NCBI GenBank assembly: GCA_025358925.1
Contig: JANYHT010000050.1
Span: 186,001 to 250,000, forward strand
Direction: 5' to 3'
DNA length: 64,000 nucleotides
Source of the DNA: Gemmatimonadaceae bacterium
GTDB taxonomy: Bacteria > Gemmatimonadota > Gemmatimonadetes > Gemmatimonadales > Gemmatimonadaceae
The notes beneath the pieces are model-generated. The model ran no database searches. It had not been told where the DNA came from and saw only the letters and a list, made by a program, of their open reading frames with translations. Numbering within the stretch: the stretch's first letter is position 1; the number at the start of each line of letters is the position of its first letter. Of the stretch, positions 19,649 to 55,284 are shown in pieces. The translations under genes and the position numbers were made by a program.

Positions 19649-20149
19649 GTGGCCGCGCTGCACACGGTGGCGCGTCATTCTTCACGCGGACCTCGCACTG
19701 GATTTTCTGTGACGCAACGCATGGGCATTGCCTTGGCGAGCCTCGTTTCCGGTATCGTCGCGCTCTATCTGCATCTTTGGAAACTTGGCATCACGGGTTC
19801 ACTGGTATGTACGGGCAACGGTGGCTGTGAGTACGTGCAGGGGAGCCGCTACGGGTGGTTTTTGGGTGTGGACGTCGCGCTCATCGGCACGGTGGGATAT
19901 GCCATGCTTTTTGTCACGGCGATGATCGGCACGTTCTCACAATACGAAGATGCGAAGTGGCCGAACACGGTGATGCAGTTGATGATTTGGCCAGCGGTGT
20001 TGTTCACGCTGCGTCTCAAATACGGCGAATTTATTGTGCTGCGAAGTTTCTGTCCGTGGTGCGCGATTTCGGCGACGGCAATTGTGGTGTGCGCGGTGTT
20101 GGTGGTCTGGGACAGGAATAGGGATTCGGGGGTAGGGATTAGGGATTAG
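19649..20149 (+). CDS. Vitamin K epoxide reductase (VKOR)-family protein
   Basis: A protein of 166 residues from a GTG at 19649 (a GTG at 19709 or ATG at 19721 are alternatives). It has four membrane helices and both functional cysteine pairs of the family: loop cysteines C54 and C60 in LVCTGNGGCEYV, followed by SRYGWFLGVDVALIG, and the active-site C135-P-W-C138 in RSFCPWCAIS. VKOR proteins in bacteria replace DsbB: they reoxidise a thioredoxin-like partner and pass electrons to quinone. The partner-like gene at 20219 and menG at 20868 sit next door. The last residues (GVGIRD) and the TAG stop are encoded by a GGGATTA repeat array, so the C-terminus is repeat-derived. Confidence 0.88.
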   Translation: MAALHTVARHSSRGPRTGFSVTQRMGIALASLVSGIVALYLHLWKLGITGSLVCTGNGGCEYVQGSRYGWFLGVDVALIGTVGYAMLFVTAMIGTFSQYEDAKWPNTVMQLMIWPAVLFTLRLKYGEFIVLRSFCPWCAISATAIVVCAVLVVWDRNRDSGVGIRD

Positions 20150-20224
20150 GGGATAGGAGCGACCAGTTTGCAATTTGCCACTCCTAATCCCTAATCCCTA
20201 ATCCCCAATGCCTAATCCCTATCC
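20116..20224. repeat. GGGATTA heptamer array with inverted arms between convergent genes
   Basis: The plus-strand arm (about 20116-20158) contains variant and perfect GGGATTA units, and an opposed arm (about 20183-20224) contains TAATCCC units, separated by about 25 bases. The stop codon of the VKOR gene (20147-20149) and that of the thioredoxin-like gene (20219-20221) both lie inside TAGGGA units. The arms could form an imperfect hairpin of roughly 40 base pairs in either transcript, giving a bidirectional terminator-like structure. Confidence 0.85.
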
Positions 20225-20869
20225 AGGTACTTCAGCGTCTCCCACCATGACCGCATACCACTGCTTCATTACCTCGCGCATGGGATAGCCGGGCATGGTT
20301 TGCACGACGCGGCCATTGCGATCGATGGCGATGAAGGTTGGTGTGCCGCGATAGCGAAACGTGAGCAAAACCTGATCGGAGCTTCCAAACGGTCCAACGA
20401 GTTGCGCGCCGACAATGTTCTCTTTCGCCAGCATTGGAATGCCGTCGGCTGCGCCCTCAAGCGTGAGCATTTTCAATCGTGGGAGAGGGCGTCCTGCGGA
20501 GAGTTCGCCTAAGTCTTTGAGCGCGCGTTTACACCAGCTACAGGTACGAGAGCTGATCATCAAAATGACCGGCTCCCCCTTGGTAATGAGCGGCACGACT
20601 TTGCCAGCCAAGTTGCGTACGCGAAACGCACCGACGGCTTGCTCGGCGGTGGGTTGCGTGTCCGATGCCGTATCGGTCCCTGCAACAACGGATGCTCCGC
20701 TCAATAGATTTGACGTGAGCGTATCGTCGGTGACTCCGAACATGCGCTGGCCAGCGACAACGCTGATACCGAAGGCGCAGCAAATGAGCAGCAGGTTGCC
20801 CAACGTTACTGTACCGCCGCGCGCGGTGCTTCGGAGAGAGGTATGGGATGATCTGTGAGAGAGAGCCAT
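20219..20869 (-). CDS. Membrane-anchored thioredoxin-like protein (DsbA/TlpA-like)
   Basis: About 216 residues from the ATG at 20869: a basic N-terminus, one membrane helix (TLGNLLLICCAFGISVVAG), a linker, then a thioredoxin-fold domain with the active site C-S-W-C in MISSRTCSWCKRALKDLGEL and the cis-proline region RGTPTFIAIDRNG. It is probably anchored in the inner membrane facing the periplasm. Position next to VKOR suggests it is the oxidant partner or a linked reductase (inference). The ATG shares the CCATGG palindrome with the divergent menG start, and no Shine-Dalgarno is evident; a GTG at 20941 is a weaker alternative. The stop codon TAG is the first unit of a heptamer array. Confidence 0.8.
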   Translation of the reverse strand: MALSHRSSHTSLRSTARGGTVTLGNLLLICCAFGISVVAGQRMFGVTDDTLTSNLLSGASVVAGTDTASDTQPTAEQAVGAFRVRNLAGKVVPLITKGEPVILMISSRTCSWCKRALKDLGELSAGRPLPRLKMLTLEGAADGIPMLAKENIVGAQLVGPFGSSDQVLLTFRYRGTPTFIAIDRNGRVVQTMPGYPMREVMKQWYAVMVGDAEVPG

Positions 20870-24668: not shown

Positions 24669-25172
24669 ATGAATCGCGTAATCTCGCCGACCCGTCGCCT
24701 GTCGTCTGCAATTTCTTCGAGTGTGGCCATCATGGCGACGCTGGTGCTTTCTGCGTGCGGTGGCGGTGACTCGCCAACGACGCCGTCCAACCCCGCCACC
24801 GATACCTACGCATCCGCGTTGGGTGTGTCGATTGCGAACATGACCAAGAAAAGCGATGCGCTGTACTACACGGATGTTGTCGTTGGCACTGGCGCCGAGG
24901 CCATCGCGGGCCGCACGTTGGGTATGAATTACACTGGATATTTGGTGAACGGTATGAAGTTCGACACAAACGCCGGCAAGAATCTGTTCTCGTTTACGCT
25001 CGGCGCGAACGAGGTGATTGCCGGTTGGGATCAGGGCATCGCCGGCATGAAGGTTGGTGGAAAGCGGAAGCTCGTCATTGGCTCCACGCTTGCCTACGGC
25101 GCCGGTGGTAGTGGCGCGATCGGACCGAATGCCACGTTGGTGTTTGACGTGGAGTTGGTGACGGTAAAGTAG
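24669..25172 (+). CDS. FKBP-type peptidyl-prolyl isomerase lipoprotein
   Basis: From the ATG at 24669: 167 residues with a lipoprotein signal (VAIMATLVLSAC, lipobox LSAC), a Ser/Thr/Pro-rich linker, then an FKBP domain: VGTGAEAIAGRTLGMNYTGYL, followed by GMKFDTN, FTLGANEVIAGWDQGIAGM and ending GPNATLVFDVELVTVK, which is the complete fold of about 110 residues. The function is cis-trans prolyl isomerisation in the periplasm. The upstream open frame overlaps the divergent exporter and is ignored. The TAG stop is the first unit of a GGGATTA array. Confidence 0.88.
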   Translation: MNRVISPTRRLSSAISSSVAIMATLVLSACGGGDSPTTPSNPATDTYASALGVSIANMTKKSDALYYTDVVVGTGAEAIAGRTLGMNYTGYLVNGMKFDTNAGKNLFSFTLGANEVIAGWDQGIAGMKVGGKRKLVIGSTLAYGAGGSGAIGPNATLVFDVELVTVK

Positions 25173-25201
25173 GGATAAGGGATTAGGGATTAGGGATTAG
25201 G
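25170..25201 (+). repeat. GGGATTA heptamer array, single arm
   Basis: Begins exactly at the stop codon of the FKBP gene: TAG, then GGGATAA and three further GGGATTA-type units ending in GG. It offers four GGG runs spaced by four bases, a G-quadruplex pattern. No opposed TAATCCC arm follows, unlike the other two arrays. It is followed at once by a C/A tract in which ACC is repeated about six times (25203-25220), which leads up to the next start codon. Confidence 0.85.
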
Positions 25202-25231
25202 AACCACCACCACCACCACCCACACCCACAC

Positions 25232-49670: not shown

Positions 49671-50338
49671 AGTCGACACGTCATGAGCAGGGCTCTCGCA
49701 TTGTTGGCACGGCGGTGTTGCCGTTGCTCCCTCCTGAAGGGCCGGTGCACGTGCTGTTGCTTGGCGAAGCACCCGGTCCGCGCGGTGCAGATAAGAGTGG
49801 CGTTCCGTTTTTTGGTGATGCTGCGGGAAAGCATTTGTATGCGGTGCTGCGCGGCATGAACGCCGTCGTGTTGCCGACAAGTATTGATGCACTCCCTTGG
49901 GATGGCGCAACGTTTGCTTCGGCGCAACTTGCGCCCATCGCGCACGGTATCGCTTTAGGGAATGCATTTGATCGTTGTCCAACGGAAAACGGGACGACGT
50001 TTCGCGCGCCGACTCGCGTTGAACTGGAAGGCGCGGACAACATCGCACGATTGACGCGGGAACTCATGACACTGCGGGCGCGAGGCTTGCGTGGTATTGT
50101 CACGCTAGGACGTGTCGCGATGAAAACCATGGATGTTGTACTGACCCGAATGCCGATGGACGGGCTTGTCCGACGCGCGATGGCGCATCCATCGGCGCAA
50201 GGCCTGCTGTCGATGGCGCCGGATCGCGGACGCGGCGCGAAGATGGCGGACCTGATTGACGCGTGGAAAGTGAAGTGCGAGCGGGCCATCATCGAGGCGG
50301 GATTTGTTGTAGCAGAGCAGGAGCCAAGGCATGAGTAG
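49667..50338 (+). CDS. Uracil-DNA glycosylase superfamily protein
   Basis: 223 residues from a GTG at 49667 that overlaps the HyuA stop (GTGA). The motif LLLGEAPGPRGADKSGVPFFG is the family 4/5-type GEAPG site (21 residues; position about 25-45), followed by AGKHLYAVL, IALGNAFDRCPTENGTTF and, near the end, AHPSAQG, which corresponds to the H-P-S loop. The four iron-sulfur cysteines of classic family 4 are not evident; only isolated cysteines occur, so it may be a divergent or non-repair member. It sits between hyuA and hyuB, an unusual place. Confidence 0.75.
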   Translation: MKSTRHEQGSRIVGTAVLPLLPPEGPVHVLLLGEAPGPRGADKSGVPFFGDAAGKHLYAVLRGMNAVVLPTSIDALPWDGATFASAQLAPIAHGIALGNAFDRCPTENGTTFRAPTRVELEGADNIARLTRELMTLRARGLRGIVTLGRVAMKTMDVVLTRMPMDGLVRRAMAHPSAQGLLSMAPDRGRGAKMADLIDAWKVKCERAIIEAGFVVAEQEPRHE

Positions 50339-51914
50339 CAGTCAGCCGCACAGTTTTGACGTGCTCGAACTAACGGTCTTCTCGCAAAGTGTCGCCATGC
50401 TCGCGGAAGAGATGGGCACGTTGCTGGAGCGGAGCGCCATCTCACCGAATATTCGCGAGCGTCGCGACGCGTCGTGCGCGTTATTTGACGCGAGCGGCCG
50501 CATGGTCGCACAAGCGGCGCACATTCCGGTACATCTTGGAGCGATGCCCGAGTCTGTCGCCGCGGTGCGGGCGCGCGATGCGCGGCCGCGCGATCTATTT
50601 TTGCTCAATGATCCGTCGCATGGCGGATCGCATTTGCCGGATCTGACGATGATTGAGGTCATCGCTGATCCGGACGACGAGACGCGCATCATCGGATATG
50701 CGGCGGTGCGGGCGCATCATGCGGATGTCGGCGGTATGAGCCCGGGCAGTATGCCATTTGGTGCGACGGAGCTTTATCAGGAAGGATTGATCGTGCCGCC
50801 GGTGCGCCTTGAAATTGCGGGTGTACCGCAGGTCGATGTCATGCGCCTTGTGCTTGCCAACGTGCGCGTCGCGGGAGAGCGTGAGGGTGATTTGCGAGCG
50901 CAGCGTGCCGCGTGTGCAGCGGGGCGCGACTCGTGGCAACTGCTGTATCGGCGACTTGGTGCGACGCAGCTCAGCCATGCGATTGATGCGTTGCTCAGTT
51001 ACACGGAGCGTCGCGTGCGCGCGCGGCTCGCGCTATTGGAAGGCGCGGAGGGGCGCGCCGTTGATGCGTTAGAGAGCGATGGCGTGAGTGATGCGGACAT
51101 CCCGGTGGTGGTGCATGCGCGCATTGCAGATTCGCTCTTACATCTCGATTTCACCGGTACGTCACCTGCGGTGCGTGGCAACGTCAACGCACCGCCAGCT
51201 GTTGCGCGTGCGGCGGCGGTGTTCGTGCTCCGCGTGTTATGTGATGATGATGTGCCCGTGAATGACGGCGTTGCGCGCGCACTGCGCATTGTCATGCCAA
51301 CCGACTGTGTGGCGAACGCGAAGAGTCCGAGTGCGGTGGCGGCCGGGAACGTGGAGCTCTCGCAGCGCATCACGGATGTGTGTTTCGCGGCGTTGGCGCG
51401 AGCGGCGGCGTCGATTGGAGTGCATGATTTGCCGATACCTGCGGCGGGGCAGGGCACGATGAACAACGTGACACTTGGCGCTTCGGGTTGGAGTTTTTAC
51501 GAAACGTTGGGAGGCGGGCAGGGGGCGAGTGCGCGCGCGCACGGACCTGATGCAGTACACGTTGGAATGAGCAATACGCGCAACACGCCCGTAGAATCGT
51601 TAGAGCGTGCGTATCCCTTGCGTGTAGTGGAATATTCGGTGCGACGCGGCAGTGGGGGTGCCGGCGCGCATCACGGGGGCGATGGCGTGGTGCGTCGATA
51701 TGAAGCGCGCGTGACGTGTACCGCCACACTCTTGACGGAGCGCCGCCGCGTCGCGCCGCCCGGCGCCGTAGGTGGTGCGGACGGTGCGCCTGGGCGCAAT
51801 TTGCTGAATGGCACTGTGCTGCCAGCCAAATGTCGTGTGACCATGCAGCCCGGCGACGTACTAACGATCGAGACGCCGGGTGGCGGGGGACACGGGATAG
51901 GGATTAGGGATTAG
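50331..51914 (+). CDS. Hydantoinase/oxoprolinase subunit B (HyuB family)
   Basis: 527 residues with HyuB signatures: AEEMGTLLERSAISPNIRER, LNDPSHGGSHLPDLTMIE, GYAAVRAHHADVGGMSPGSMP, and the C-terminal GGQGASARAHGPDAVHVGMS and RVVEYSVRRGSGGAGAHHGG. It is the metal-binding catalytic half that works with HyuA. The ATG overlaps the UDG-like gene by 8 bases. The last residues GIGIRD and the TAG stop come from the GGGATTA array, so the natural C-terminus has been replaced or extended by repeat sequence. Confidence 0.9.
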   Translation: MSSSQPHSFDVLELTVFSQSVAMLAEEMGTLLERSAISPNIRERRDASCALFDASGRMVAQAAHIPVHLGAMPESVAAVRARDARPRDLFLLNDPSHGGSHLPDLTMIEVIADPDDETRIIGYAAVRAHHADVGGMSPGSMPFGATELYQEGLIVPPVRLEIAGVPQVDVMRLVLANVRVAGEREGDLRAQRAACAAGRDSWQLLYRRLGATQLSHAIDALLSYTERRVRARLALLEGAEGRAVDALESDGVSDADIPVVVHARIADSLLHLDFTGTSPAVRGNVNAPPAVARAAAVFVLRVLCDDDVPVNDGVARALRIVMPTDCVANAKSPSAVAAGNVELSQRITDVCFAALARAAASIGVHDLPIPAAGQGTMNNVTLGASGWSFYETLGGGQGASARAHGPDAVHVGMSNTRNTPVESLERAYPLRVVEYSVRRGSGGAGAHHGGDGVVRRYEARVTCTATLLTERRRVAPPGAVGGADGAPGRNLLNGTVLPAKCRVTMQPGDVLTIETPGGGGHGIGIRD

Positions 51915-52020
51915 GGATTAGGGATTAGGGATTAGGGATTAGGGATTAGGGATTAGGGTTCGTCTCAATCCCTAACCCCTAGTCCCTAGTCCCTAATCCC
52001 TAATCCCTACTCAGTCCCTA
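51894..52020. repeat. GGGATTA heptamer array with inverted arm, largest copy
   Basis: A GGGATA unit at 51894 is followed by eight perfect GGGATTA units in a row (51900-51955) and a GGGTT end. After a short spacer (CGTCTC) comes the opposed arm of TAATCCC and variants TAGTCCC and TAACCCC (about 51966-52020). The stop of hyuB (51912-51914) and of the S9 peptidase (52018-52020) lie inside TAGGGA units. The arms could fold as a long imperfect hairpin between the convergent genes. Confidence 0.93.
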
Positions 52021-55000
52021 TGGAATAATTTTCGTGACGGGCGCTGCCTTCGGATCGACCAGCGGACGTCGCTCTTTCAAATGGTCTTCCATCTGCAAGC
52101 GTGGTACGCCGTCTTTCAACCAATCTGGAGCCGGTTGATCGCGAAGAAATGTGTCAAACCATTCCGTCATGCGGAGATTGTAGTCCTTCTGATTCGCCGG
52201 TCGTGCGAGTCCGTGGTTTTCACCCACATATTCGAGGAGCACCACATCTTTGCCCAATTGACGGAGATGGTTGTAGTACGTGATACCTTGATTGAAATCC
52301 ACCGCACCGTCACGGTCGTTATGCAAAATCATGAACGGAATGTTCAGATTCTGCGCAAAGTTTTGTGGCGAGTTGCGCATGTACGCGTCGGGCACGTCGT
52401 TCGGTCCACCAGTAAACCGACCTTGGCTCGAGATAAAAATTGAGGCATCGGTGGTACCGGTGTTCCAATACATTGAGCCAAACATCGACACCATGTCCGT
52501 GAGCGGCGCGCCAGCCACTGCCGTCTTAAAAATATTAGTTTGCGTCGTGATGAATGTGGTTTGATAGCCACCCCAGCTGTGCCCTTGCAGGCCAACGCGT
52601 GCCGTATCGATCATGCCCGTGGCAATGGCTGCCTTCACTGCTGGCACGACGCACCACACCGCCGAACGACCCGGATCATTCACGTGATAGACAATGTCCG
52701 GCTTGAGGAAGGCATAACCACGTGACGTGTACACGCTGGGATTGGAATAGCGTGTCGCGTTTGGTTCGGTGTAGACGTTGAACTCTTGGCTCAGCTTTTC
52801 GTAAATGTACGTGAGCATCGGATACGTTTTCCCCTGCTCATAGCCGGCCGGGAGATACAACACCGCCTGATGCTTGCCGCCGCCATTCTCGCACTCGTAG
52901 TTGATCAACTTTGCGCCTGGCGTCCACGCGACGTCTTTCTGCTGCGGATTCGCATCCGTGAGACGACGTTCGTTTTTCAAACCGTCGTCGGCCGCGTAAA
53001 AGTCCGGATATTTCACGACGGACTGTCGCGCATACACCCAGATGTTGGCGTCACGCGCTTTGCGATAGTCCACCTTCGCCTCTTCCCACGCGATGGTTTT
53101 TACGCCGCCCTTGAGCGCGTCCACTTGTACGAGCCCTTCCTTCTTCGTCCACTCGCCGTACGTCTCCATAAACATTGGTTTCGCGACGTCGATAATGCCG
53201 CGATCGCGTGGGTCGGAGAGCACGCGCGTCTGATAACGAATCTGCTCCGTCTTGCCGTTGCTTGTGAGATTGACCGCGGCACCCGTCGCGCCCACCGGCA
53301 AACGCCACAGGTCCCAGTTGTCACGCACAAATACCTGTGCGCCGTCCTTCGTCCACCCAACCAACGCACCACCAATTGCCGGCTTCACTTGGTTGTGGTC
53401 GTCTTCCGTATTCCAAAATTGCGACGGCACACCAGTTGTAATGGTTTTCGTTGCACCCGTTGAAAAATCGTACGTCTTCCAATCGCCCGCATCGAAGTAC
53501 GCATACTTGTTGTTATCAGGCGAAAAACTCAGTGACGGACCGCCACCACGTCCGCCACCACCACCACCGCCTGGTACTTTCGCTTGAATCAGTTTGCGTT
53601 CGCCCGTGCTCACGTTGATCGCATAGATGTCGCGAAACGAAACACCGGAGATGCCTTGCACACGCTCATACGCCGATGCATCAGACGCCACCGCCCAAGA
53701 GTCTTTCGGACCGACCGAGACCTCGCGTAACCTTGGATCGGCAAGCTTCACCACCTTCGCCGTGACCATGTTGTACGCGGCGAGATAGCTGAAGGCTTTG
53801 TCTTGCCCCTCTTGCACCTGCTGTTGGGCCTGCGGACGTGGATCTTTCCAGTGCCACAAAATAAGTGAGGGCACTTCCGCATCGGTCTGCGGTGCAGCTG
53901 CAATTTGCCCCGTGTTGCCGGCGCCTGGCGCAGCACCACCGGGGTTGGGTGCAGTGAACACATTCGCGGTGCGTGAACGCGGCGGACGCGGCTCGCGCAA
54001 GCCAAAATAGAGCACACCGTCTTTGTCGCCCCACTCCAACGCGCGATCACTACTCAACACCAACCCACTCGGCACACCCGCAGATTTCGCGTTCAGTTCG
54101 ATCACTTTCGCGTTGGGTAACGCGGCATGCGGCCAGGCGAGCACCGTCACATCATCATCAGCACCGGCGGTGTCCGTTACCACGCGATACGCGATCAGTG
54201 CATCACTGGAATCGCCCCATGTGAGGCGACGATACGATGCCTTCTTCACGTCCAGTGTGCGTGCAATGCCTGAGGACAATTGACGTAACTGCACACTGTT
54301 GCCCGCTTGATCGGTCGTCGCGATGGCGAGGGCAACCCAATCCCCTGCATCGTCGAATGCGAATTCAGCAACGTCGGAAATTGGTGTCGGCATGCCGCCT
54401 GCGAGGTTCACGAGTTCAAGCGTCGAGCCGACGGCGACACCACCGCCGGCGCCGCCTGCTGCTGGTGCGACTACCACACTGCGCGGGGCTGCGAGATGCA
54501 CGGCAATCCAGTCCGATTTATCACCGGCGAAACGAAACGCGCGCACATTTTCAAACTCGCGCTTCGTACCATCCACGAGATTGACGACCGCCAGCTTTGT
54601 TTGCGCAGCGGTCGCAGGCGCTGCTCCACCGGCGGTTCCTGTACCGCCACGACCTCCACGTCCGTTGCGGCCTGCGGCAGTTGCACTGCTCGCGTACTCA
54701 AGAAATGCCACCCAGTGTGCGTTGCCGCTGATCGCGATGCTCGGCGAGCCGCCGCCGCCGCTGCGGCCAGCGCCCGTAGTGCCAGCCGATGCATCACCAA
54801 TTGGGAAGCGCATCTCTTTCGCGCCTGCCGCAGTACTGCGCACAACGACTTCGGCGTCGCCCTCGTTGGGCGCGATGACATAGGCGAACCACTTGCCGTC
54901 GTTCGATAACTGGGGTGTCCGCACGCCCTTCCACGACAGTAAGTCGTTGACGGTCAGTTGACGGCCAGCCGTTGCGGGCGGGGTCCACTTGGAAACGGGC

Positions 55001-55140
55001 TTGTCGTCCTTGGCACCAAAGGGCAGCGCCGTTAACGGTGAAGGAGTCGACACGTTTTGCGTGGGCGTTTGTGCATGTGCAGCACACGCGAGCAGCCCAG
55101 TGGCCGCGAGGGTCAGGCGAGCGAGGAGCGAAAGACGCAT
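52018..55140 (-). CDS. Secreted S9-family prolyl oligopeptidase
   Basis: About 1040 residues from the ATG at 55140 with a signal peptide (MRLSLLARLTLAATGLLACA, cleavage after HAQ). An N-terminal propeller-like region has WD40-like and glycine-rich inserts (GRNGRGGRGGTGTAGG; GGGGGGRGGGPSLSF), then the alpha/beta hydrolase domain with the catalytic serine in LQGHSWGGYQTTF, the acid in LHNDRDGAVDF and the histidine in YVGENHGL. It should cleave peptides in the periplasm or outside. A GTG-type extension to 55239 gives no signal and is not preferred. Its TAG stop is the start of the heptamer array. Confidence 0.92.
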   Translation of the reverse strand: MRLSLLARLTLAATGLLACAAHAQTPTQNVSTPSPLTALPFGAKDDKPVSKWTPPATAGRQLTVNDLLSWKGVRTPQLSNDGKWFAYVIAPNEGDAEVVVRSTAAGAKEMRFPIGDASAGTTGAGRSGGGGSPSIAISGNAHWVAFLEYASSATAAGRNGRGGRGGTGTAGGAAPATAAQTKLAVVNLVDGTKREFENVRAFRFAGDKSDWIAVHLAAPRSVVVAPAAGGAGGGVAVGSTLELVNLAGGMPTPISDVAEFAFDDAGDWVALAIATTDQAGNSVQLRQLSSGIARTLDVKKASYRRLTWGDSSDALIAYRVVTDTAGADDDVTVLAWPHAALPNAKVIELNAKSAGVPSGLVLSSDRALEWGDKDGVLYFGLREPRPPRSRTANVFTAPNPGGAAPGAGNTGQIAAAPQTDAEVPSLILWHWKDPRPQAQQQVQEGQDKAFSYLAAYNMVTAKVVKLADPRLREVSVGPKDSWAVASDASAYERVQGISGVSFRDIYAINVSTGERKLIQAKVPGGGGGGGRGGGPSLSFSPDNNKYAYFDAGDWKTYDFSTGATKTITTGVPSQFWNTEDDHNQVKPAIGGALVGWTKDGAQVFVRDNWDLWRLPVGATGAAVNLTSNGKTEQIRYQTRVLSDPRDRGIIDVAKPMFMETYGEWTKKEGLVQVDALKGGVKTIAWEEAKVDYRKARDANIWVYARQSVVKYPDFYAADDGLKNERRLTDANPQQKDVAWTPGAKLINYECENGGGKHQAVLYLPAGYEQGKTYPMLTYIYEKLSQEFNVYTEPNATRYSNPSVYTSRGYAFLKPDIVYHVNDPGRSAVWCVVPAVKAAIATGMIDTARVGLQGHSWGGYQTTFITTQTNIFKTAVAGAPLTDMVSMFGSMYWNTGTTDASIFISSQGRFTGGPNDVPDAYMRNSPQNFAQNLNIPFMILHNDRDGAVDFNQGITYYNHLRQLGKDVVLLEYVGENHGLARPANQKDYNLRMTEWFDTFLRDQPAPDWLKDGVPRLQMEDHLKERRPLVDPKAAPVTKIIP

Positions 55141-55284
55141 TGGGAATCCGAGTAAGAGGCGTGCGCCAAGACTAGCGCGCGCGGATTCGCGGCGAAAGCT
55201 ACGGTCATCGGTTCGTCCCAATCCACTCAGACGCGGCACCGTATTGGCTAGGCGATTTCGCGCTCGCAGAATACTGTTATCACT

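What the first reader, a model, noticed from the sequence alone, without database searches (positions are those of the whole stretch)
51894..52020. Heptamer arrays whose repeat unit supplies the stop codons of all adjoining genes
GGGATTA arrays occur three times (about 20116-20224, 25170-25201, 51894-52020). All five gene ends next to them (20149, 20219, 25172, 51914, 52018) use a TAG that is part of a TAGGGA unit. Two of these proteins (VKOR, HyuB) also end in repeat-coded GIRD. This is direct observation; that it is more than chance needs a genome-wide count. It suggests either an element that nucleates at TAG stops or selection for capping gene ends.
Basis: seen in the sequence. Interest (0 to 1): 0.85.

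Follow-up and report, generated by a model that had tools for sequence, protein, structure and literature searches.

The report
G-rich heptamer repeats at gene edges
This bacterium (probably a Gemmatimonas species) carries about 100 short runs of the 7-letter unit TAGGGAT at the ends of its genes; they often supply a gene's stop signal, but only because a 7-letter unit containing TAG puts a stop in every reading frame, and similar repeats are already known from Xanthomonas and Nostoc.

Summary
The three window loci carry TAGGGRN arrays, and all five adjoining genes stop at a TAG inside an array unit. A count covering 218 of the genome's 240 two-unit hits found 93 arrays. Of 48 arrays starting within 60 nt of a sense gene's 3' end, 38 contain that gene's stop.

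The two proposed causes fail. Nucleation at TAG stops: in-array stops spread evenly over first, second and third unit (15/10/12, p=0.60), and genes whose own stop precedes an array use TGA/TAG/TAA like the background. Selection for TAG caps: the unit's TA is equally conserved in antisense arrays at gene starts, where it is not read as a stop (81% versus 81%, p=1). Because 7 mod 3 = 1, three units put TAG in every frame, so stop capture is automatic.

What is real is a position and polarity rule: the 5' edge of the G-strand abuts the gene, and close pairs are convergent (23 of 24). Rehm et al. 2015 reported the same for Xanthomonas and Nostoc heptamers. This is a new, fast-evolving, patchily distributed member of that class. 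The cause of the polarity remains open.

The parts
51894..51960 (+). G-strand array, 9 units of TAGGGAT; supplies the TAG (51912-51914) of the HyuB-like gene 50331-51914
   Evidence: relatives keep ETPGGGGWG and then a variable tail, which the array replaces
51967..52020 (-). G-strand array on the minus strand (units vary: TAGGGAT, TAGGGAC, TAGGGGT); its outermost TAGGGAC supplies the TAG of the peptidase gene 52018-55239
20115..20160 (+). G-strand array with degenerate first units; supplies the VKOR stop at 20149 (tail NRDSGVGIRD*)
   Evidence: same array in sister genome G018; array-free relative G020 has tail VTAAPSPAP* TGA there
20180..20221 (-). minus-strand G array; its first unit supplies the stop at 20219 of the thioredoxin-like gene
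   Evidence: in G020 the two genes overlap by 29 bp with no array
25170..25204 (+). single G-strand array between co-directional genes; its first TAG is the stop of the FKBP-type isomerase (25172)
50331..51914 (+). HyuB-like gene (hydantoinase B / caprolactamase beta-like), ends GIRD* in the array
52018..55239 (-). S9-type peptidase-like gene, convergent with the HyuB-like gene
19721..20149 (+). VKOR-like gene (start uncertain), ends GIRD* in the array
20219..20743 (-). thioredoxin-like gene (start uncertain), convergent with VKOR; name from sequence reading, no NCBIfam hit
24669..25172 (+). FKBP-type peptidyl-prolyl isomerase (start uncertain)

Best explanation
These are lineage-specific G-rich heptamer arrays (consensus TAGGGRN), prone to copy-number change and with G-quadruplex or hairpin potential, of the same class as the GGGAATC arrays of Xanthomonas and the GGGGAYT arrays of Nostoc. 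They sit at the outer border of purifying selection on genes. An array is tolerated up to the last residue or codon that matters. If the C-terminus is constrained to its last residue, the array starts just past the intact stop. If the gene ends in a dispensable tail, the array replaces that tail, and the ORF ends at the first in-frame TAG, reached within 21 nt because 7 mod 3 = 1. Shown: positions, frames, stop usage, unit conservation, shared loci with changed copy number in the sister species. Inferred: slippage as the source of copy-number change, and near-neutrality. Not explained: why the 5' edge of the G strand faces the gene, which looks like a DNA-level rule since it holds at 3' ends (sense) and at gene starts (antisense).
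For: Stop frames uniform, 15/10/12. Stops in all three forward frames in 74 of 93 arrays. Adjacent genes with intact stops have background stop usage. Among loci with an outgroup ortholog, five genes with C-termini conserved to the end keep their own stop 1-24 nt before the array (C1_92321, C15_44394, C26_101171, C26_101239, C3_11215), while genes with variable tails (HyuB, VKOR, C26_86497, C50_118233, C3_4932) are overwritten by the array. TA conservation does not depend on whether it is read as a stop. Sister genome G018 (HyuB 97% identical) has arrays at the same loci with other unit variants and copy numbers, e.g. GGGAGTA for GGGATTA. Position and polarity match Rehm et al. 2015, PMC4692102.
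Against: Polarity (45 G-sense versus 7 C-sense at 3' ends; 14 versus 1 at gene starts; 23 convergent and no divergent close pairs) is stronger than neutrality plus purifying selection predicts, because most arrays (70 of 93) also give stops in at least two frames when read in the C-rich direction. The TA of the unit is well conserved in this lineage although a G-quadruplex loop does not need it. Several pairs enclose a strong terminator-like hairpin, so a role at transcript ends is not excluded.
Confidence: 0.72

Rival explanations
1. The arrays are selected as fail-safe stop cassettes: TAG every 7 nt terminates in-frame, frameshifted and readthrough ribosomes.
For: Stops in all three frames in 74/93 arrays; TA conserved in the unit; G-sense polarity at 3' ends.
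Against: TA equally conserved in antisense arrays at gene starts; arrays also follow intact stops; units without TAG occupy comparable positions in genus G037 and in Xanthomonas (GGGAATC gives no stop on the G strand; PMC4692102); most congeners have none.
Confidence: 0.08
2. The arrays act at RNA level as 3'-end elements: the G-rich transcript just after the stop folds (G4, or a hairpin with the convergent arm) and pauses polymerase or protects the mRNA, next to the intrinsic terminator.
For: Lie between stop and terminator-like hairpin in several loci (spacers folding at -23 to -31 kcal/mol); 63 of 93 have four G3 tracts; Rehm et al. found their repeats transcribed and G4-forming in vitro (PMC4692102).
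Against: The same polarity occurs at gene starts on the antisense strand; 23 of 30 genomes of the genus have no three-unit array; about half of the arrays have no paired arm.
Confidence: 0.2
3. The convergent pair with its spacer is a mobile inverted-repeat element (REP/MITE-like) that inserts at gene tails as a unit.
For: 23 of 24 close pairs are convergent; at C3:4875-4973 the whole pair is absent in G018, where the two genes overlap by 46 bp, and at the VKOR locus G020 has a 29-bp overlap instead of the pair; a weak 3'-border motif GGAAC (16 of 93 versus 2% of background windows).
Against: Spacers share no obvious sequence between loci; no RAYT-type Y1 transposase and no RVT_1 reverse transcriptase found in G000 or G018; about half the arrays are single.
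Confidence: 0.12
4. Arrays nucleate at TAG stop codons.
For: Five of five in the window; 15 genes stop in the first unit.
Against: 22 of 37 stop in the second or third unit, as expected for random frame; background stop usage next to arrays.
Confidence: 0.03

Closest known systems
GGGAATC / GGGGA(C/T)T quadruplex-forming heptamer repeats of Xanthomonas and Nostoc (Rehm et al. 2015, PMC4692102)
   Same: 7-nt G3/G4 unit, dispersed, intergenic, G strand within 50 bp downstream of the stop (sense) or upstream of the ORF (antisense), convergent pairs, copy number changing between related species
   Different: Here the unit is TAGGGRN, so it carries a stop codon; arrays overlap the stop in most 3'-end cases; different phylum (Gemmatimonadota); no biophysics done here
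TAACTGA heptamer repeats of marine Beggiatoaceae (MacGregor 2015, PMC4679880)
   Same: Intergenic heptamer arrays; that paper already notes that forward repeats give stop codons in all three frames, so overlapping copies are necessarily at ORF ends
   Different: Not G-rich; mostly upstream of start codons; only 13 sets overlap an upstream stop
Short tandemly repeated repetitive (STRR) sequences of heterocystous cyanobacteria (from my own knowledge; the name occurs papers)
   Same: Dispersed heptamer arrays in intergenic DNA
   Different: Other units and lineage; not compared in detail here
REP/BIME palindromic elements with RAYT transposases (own knowledge)
   Same: Intergenic inverted repeats at gene ends
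   Different: No shared palindrome, and no Y1_Tnp hit in the array-rich genomes

Membership tests
Rehm-type G-rich heptamer repeats | Heptameric unit with a G3-4 tract, in arrays of about 2 to 26 units | tested here: met
   93 arrays, 2-13 units, mode 5, unit TAGGGRN
Rehm-type G-rich heptamer repeats | Over-represented in non-coding DNA near gene borders | tested here: met
   Nearly all in intergenic gaps or over gene borders in a 90% coding genome
Rehm-type G-rich heptamer repeats | Sense strand within 50 bp of stop, or antisense strand within 50 bp of start | tested here: met
   45 versus 7 at stops, 14 versus 1 at starts for the -35..+24 range
Rehm-type G-rich heptamer repeats | Close pairs in convergent orientation | tested here: met
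   23 convergent, 0 divergent, 1 tandem
Rehm-type G-rich heptamer repeats | Preference for four units / ability to form G4 in vitro | tested here: inconclusive
   63 of 93 have four G3 tracts by pattern; mode is 5 units by my definition; no CD spectroscopy possible
REP/RAYT elements | Shared palindrome and a Y1 transposase in the genome | tested here: not met
   No common spacer or palindrome seen; no PF01797 hit in G000 or G018
TAACTGA repeats | TAACTGA unit in forward orientation just upstream of start codons | tested here: not met
   Different unit; start-side arrays are antisense

The most novel reading that the evidence does not exclude
A still unknown, directional DNA-level process builds G-rich heptamer arrays outward from gene borders (G strand 5' end at the gene, 3' end into the intergenic gap), independent of transcription direction and of exact unit sequence, and has done so separately in Gemmatimonadota, Xanthomonas and Nostoc. 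The overwriting of stop codons would be a by-product.
Probability: 0.25. Interest if true: 0.6.

Novelty: new member of a known kind. Interest (0 to 1): 0.4.

Why it matters
It shows how a repeat whose unit carries a stop and whose length is not a multiple of three can overwrite gene ends harmlessly, so C-terminal tails such as GIRD are repeat-coded noise that can mislead annotation. It adds a new phylum to the G-heptamer class and gives a usable comparison set: two species of the genus with many three-unit hits (133 and 124), five with 2-13, and 23 with none. That set makes the unexplained polarity rule testable.

Tried and rejected
(1) TAG nucleation: rejected by frame uniformity and by stop usage of adjacent genes. 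(2) Selection for TAG: rejected by equal TA conservation in antisense arrays. (3) Break-end capping by a telomerase-like activity, suggested by the outward polarity and the telomere-like unit: no RVT_1 protein found in G000 or G018, and terminator-like hairpins lie inside some spacers. (4) RAYT mobility: no Y1_Tnp. (5) Loss of mismatch repair or DinG-type helicase: MutS1 and PF13307 are present in both array-rich genomes. (6) Assembly artefact: an independent metagenome-assembled genome (G018) has arrays at the same loci. (7) A common element inside the spacers: not found; only a weak GGAAC border.

Full report
OBSERVATION. The consensus unit is TAGGGRN rather than strict GGGATTA: TAGGGAT 150, TAGGGAA 48, TAGGGGT 39, TAGGGAC 37. 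All five adjoining stops are TAG in register with a unit.

GENOME-WIDE COUNT. The window is C62:186001-250000 of a 4.0-Mb, 72-contig genome. It has 95 TAGGGATTAGGGA hits and 240 TAGGGRNTAGGGR hits. I fetched 817 kb holding 218 of the 240, called genes with a codon-usage dynamic programme (762 genes, 90% coding), and found 93 arrays. For 48 arrays the 5' edge lies within 60 nt of a sense gene's 3' end, and in 38 of these the stop is inside the array. This is more than random placement and orientation within the same gaps gives: 45 versus a mean of 21.9 and a maximum of 35 in 5000 trials for the -35..+24 range.

WHY THE STOP IS IN THE ARRAY. The unit is 7 nt, so successive TAGs fall in successive frames; 74 of 93 arrays have a stop in all three forward frames and the rest in two. 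An ORF without a stop before the array must end within about 21 nt of its start, with a tail such as GIRD, GNRE or GVRE. If arrays had started from a TAG stop, the first unit would supply the stop. Instead the first, second and third units supply 15, 10 and 12 (chi-square p=0.60). Genes with their own stop 0-60 nt before an array use TGA 9, TAG 6, TAA 2, like the background of 342/169/143. If TAG were selected as a cap, TA should be better conserved where it is read. It is 136/167 in 3'-end sense arrays and 87/107 in antisense arrays beside gene starts (Fisher p=1.0; the same detection rule applies to both groups).

ORTHOLOGOUS ENDS. Relatives in the same genus without this array were read for 13 loci. 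HyuB: 20-plus relatives keep ETPGGGGWG and then carry unrelated tails of about 1-14 residues with TAG, TGA or TAA. The array begins right after that motif. Where the C-terminus is conserved to the last residue (SDAV*, REGY*, GPGC*, YYSS*, VGYDx*), the original stop is intact and the array starts 1-24 nt later. So the array border coincides with the border of constraint, on whichever side of the stop that falls. Some relatives have unrelated tandem repeats at the same place, for example a 16-mer GCGCTAAAAGTGAACT in G002 and a 13-mer in G004 after HyuB, and an 11-mer-like array in G020 after C26_86497.

TURNOVER. The sister genome G018 (HyuB 97% identical) has arrays at most of the same loci among its contigs that I fetched (chosen because they carry arrays, so biased), with other copy numbers and other unit variants. 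One pair, C3:4875-4973, is absent in G018, where the two genes overlap by 46 bp. At the window's VKOR/thioredoxin-like locus, array-free G020 has the two genes overlapping by 29 bp.

DISTRIBUTION. In the genus, G000 has 133 three-unit hits, G018 124, five others 2-13, and 23 none. In the family, 15 of 179 genomes have any, with scattered heavy loads in G042 and G132 and a lighter one in G037. Those genera use other units too: GGGATCA, GGGATTC (G037), GGGTAGA, GGGCTGA, GGGTCTA (G042). There the G strand again follows genes, in several loci directly after intact TAG, TGA or TAA. The genus is probably Gemmatimonas: named close hits are Gemmatimonas sp. and Gemmatimonadaceae assemblies, and the length of G001, 4,636,964 bp, matches G. 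aurantiaca T-27 from my memory.

POLARITY. The 5' edge of the G strand is the edge nearer a gene in 70 of 90 arrays (p=1e-7). Near 3' ends, G-sense outnumbers C-sense 45 to 7; near starts, antisense outnumbers sense 14 to 1. Close pairs are 23 convergent, 0 divergent, 1 tandem. In convergent gaps with two arrays, the length outside the arrays (median 40) resembles that of array-free gaps (34.5), so arrays seem added at the borders of an ordinary gap, though some outgroup gaps are longer than the array-bearing gap. Seven of 19 folded spacers fold at -14 kcal/mol or better and six at -23 or better, five of them as clear terminator-like hairpins.

KNOWN WORK. Rehm et al. 2015 (PMC4692102) describe GGGAATC arrays in two Xanthomonas genomes and GGGGA(C/T)T arrays in Nostoc: intergenic, near the stop on the sense strand or upstream of the ORF on the antisense strand, 70-75 convergent close pairs per Xanthomonas genome, variable between species, G4-forming in vitro, function unknown. 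MacGregor 2015 (PMC4679880) notes for TAACTGA repeats that three-frame stops force overlapping copies to lie at ORF ends. The present arrays are a Gemmatimonadota member of this class; the stop-codon relation is an arithmetical consequence of the unit.

LIMITS. Gene calls are mine, not curated; starts are uncertain. The 93 arrays were selected by a TAGGG rule, so TAG-free arrays in G000 would be under-counted; an unbiased GGGNNNN scan found 82 of 89 runs to be of the NNTA type. Letters from other array-rich genera are few. No expression data exist here.

Noticed in passing
G000, G018 and 28 congeners: Most Gemmatimonas genomes have two strong RecQ-family hits (about 535 aa and about 610 aa). 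Both array-rich genomes have only the longer type; five array-free genomes (G006, G008, G010, G011, G024) also lack the shorter type, so this is only a lead.
   Followed up: partly
G002, G023, G024, G004 (loci L138, L139, L141, L140, L163), just after the HyuB-like gene: Other lineage-specific tandem repeats (16-mer GCGCTAAAAGTGAACT, 13-mer GTCGGCGTAGCTC) occupy the same gene end, as if this border were a repeat hotspot whatever the unit.
   Followed up: partly
G037 loci L324, L327 and L333: Between the two arrays of convergent pairs lies a shared interior resembling the widespread GTCATCCTGAGCGAAGCGAGGATCT-type intergenic repeat.
   Followed up: no
G000:C53:146050-146084 (locus L084) and other gene starts: Antisense arrays reach to within 0-5 nt of predicted start codons (CCCTATGAAG), leaving no Shine-Dalgarno sequence.
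   Followed up: no
G000:C1:92365-92455 (locus L055) and C18:96175-96229: Two contigs end in or right after long GGGGTTA arrays, so the assembly breaks at the longest arrays and the true maximum length is unknown.
   Followed up: no
93 arrays in G000: GGAAC occurs at the 3' border of 16 of 93 arrays versus 2% of background intergenic 25-mers; it could be a remnant of an element border.
   Followed up: partly
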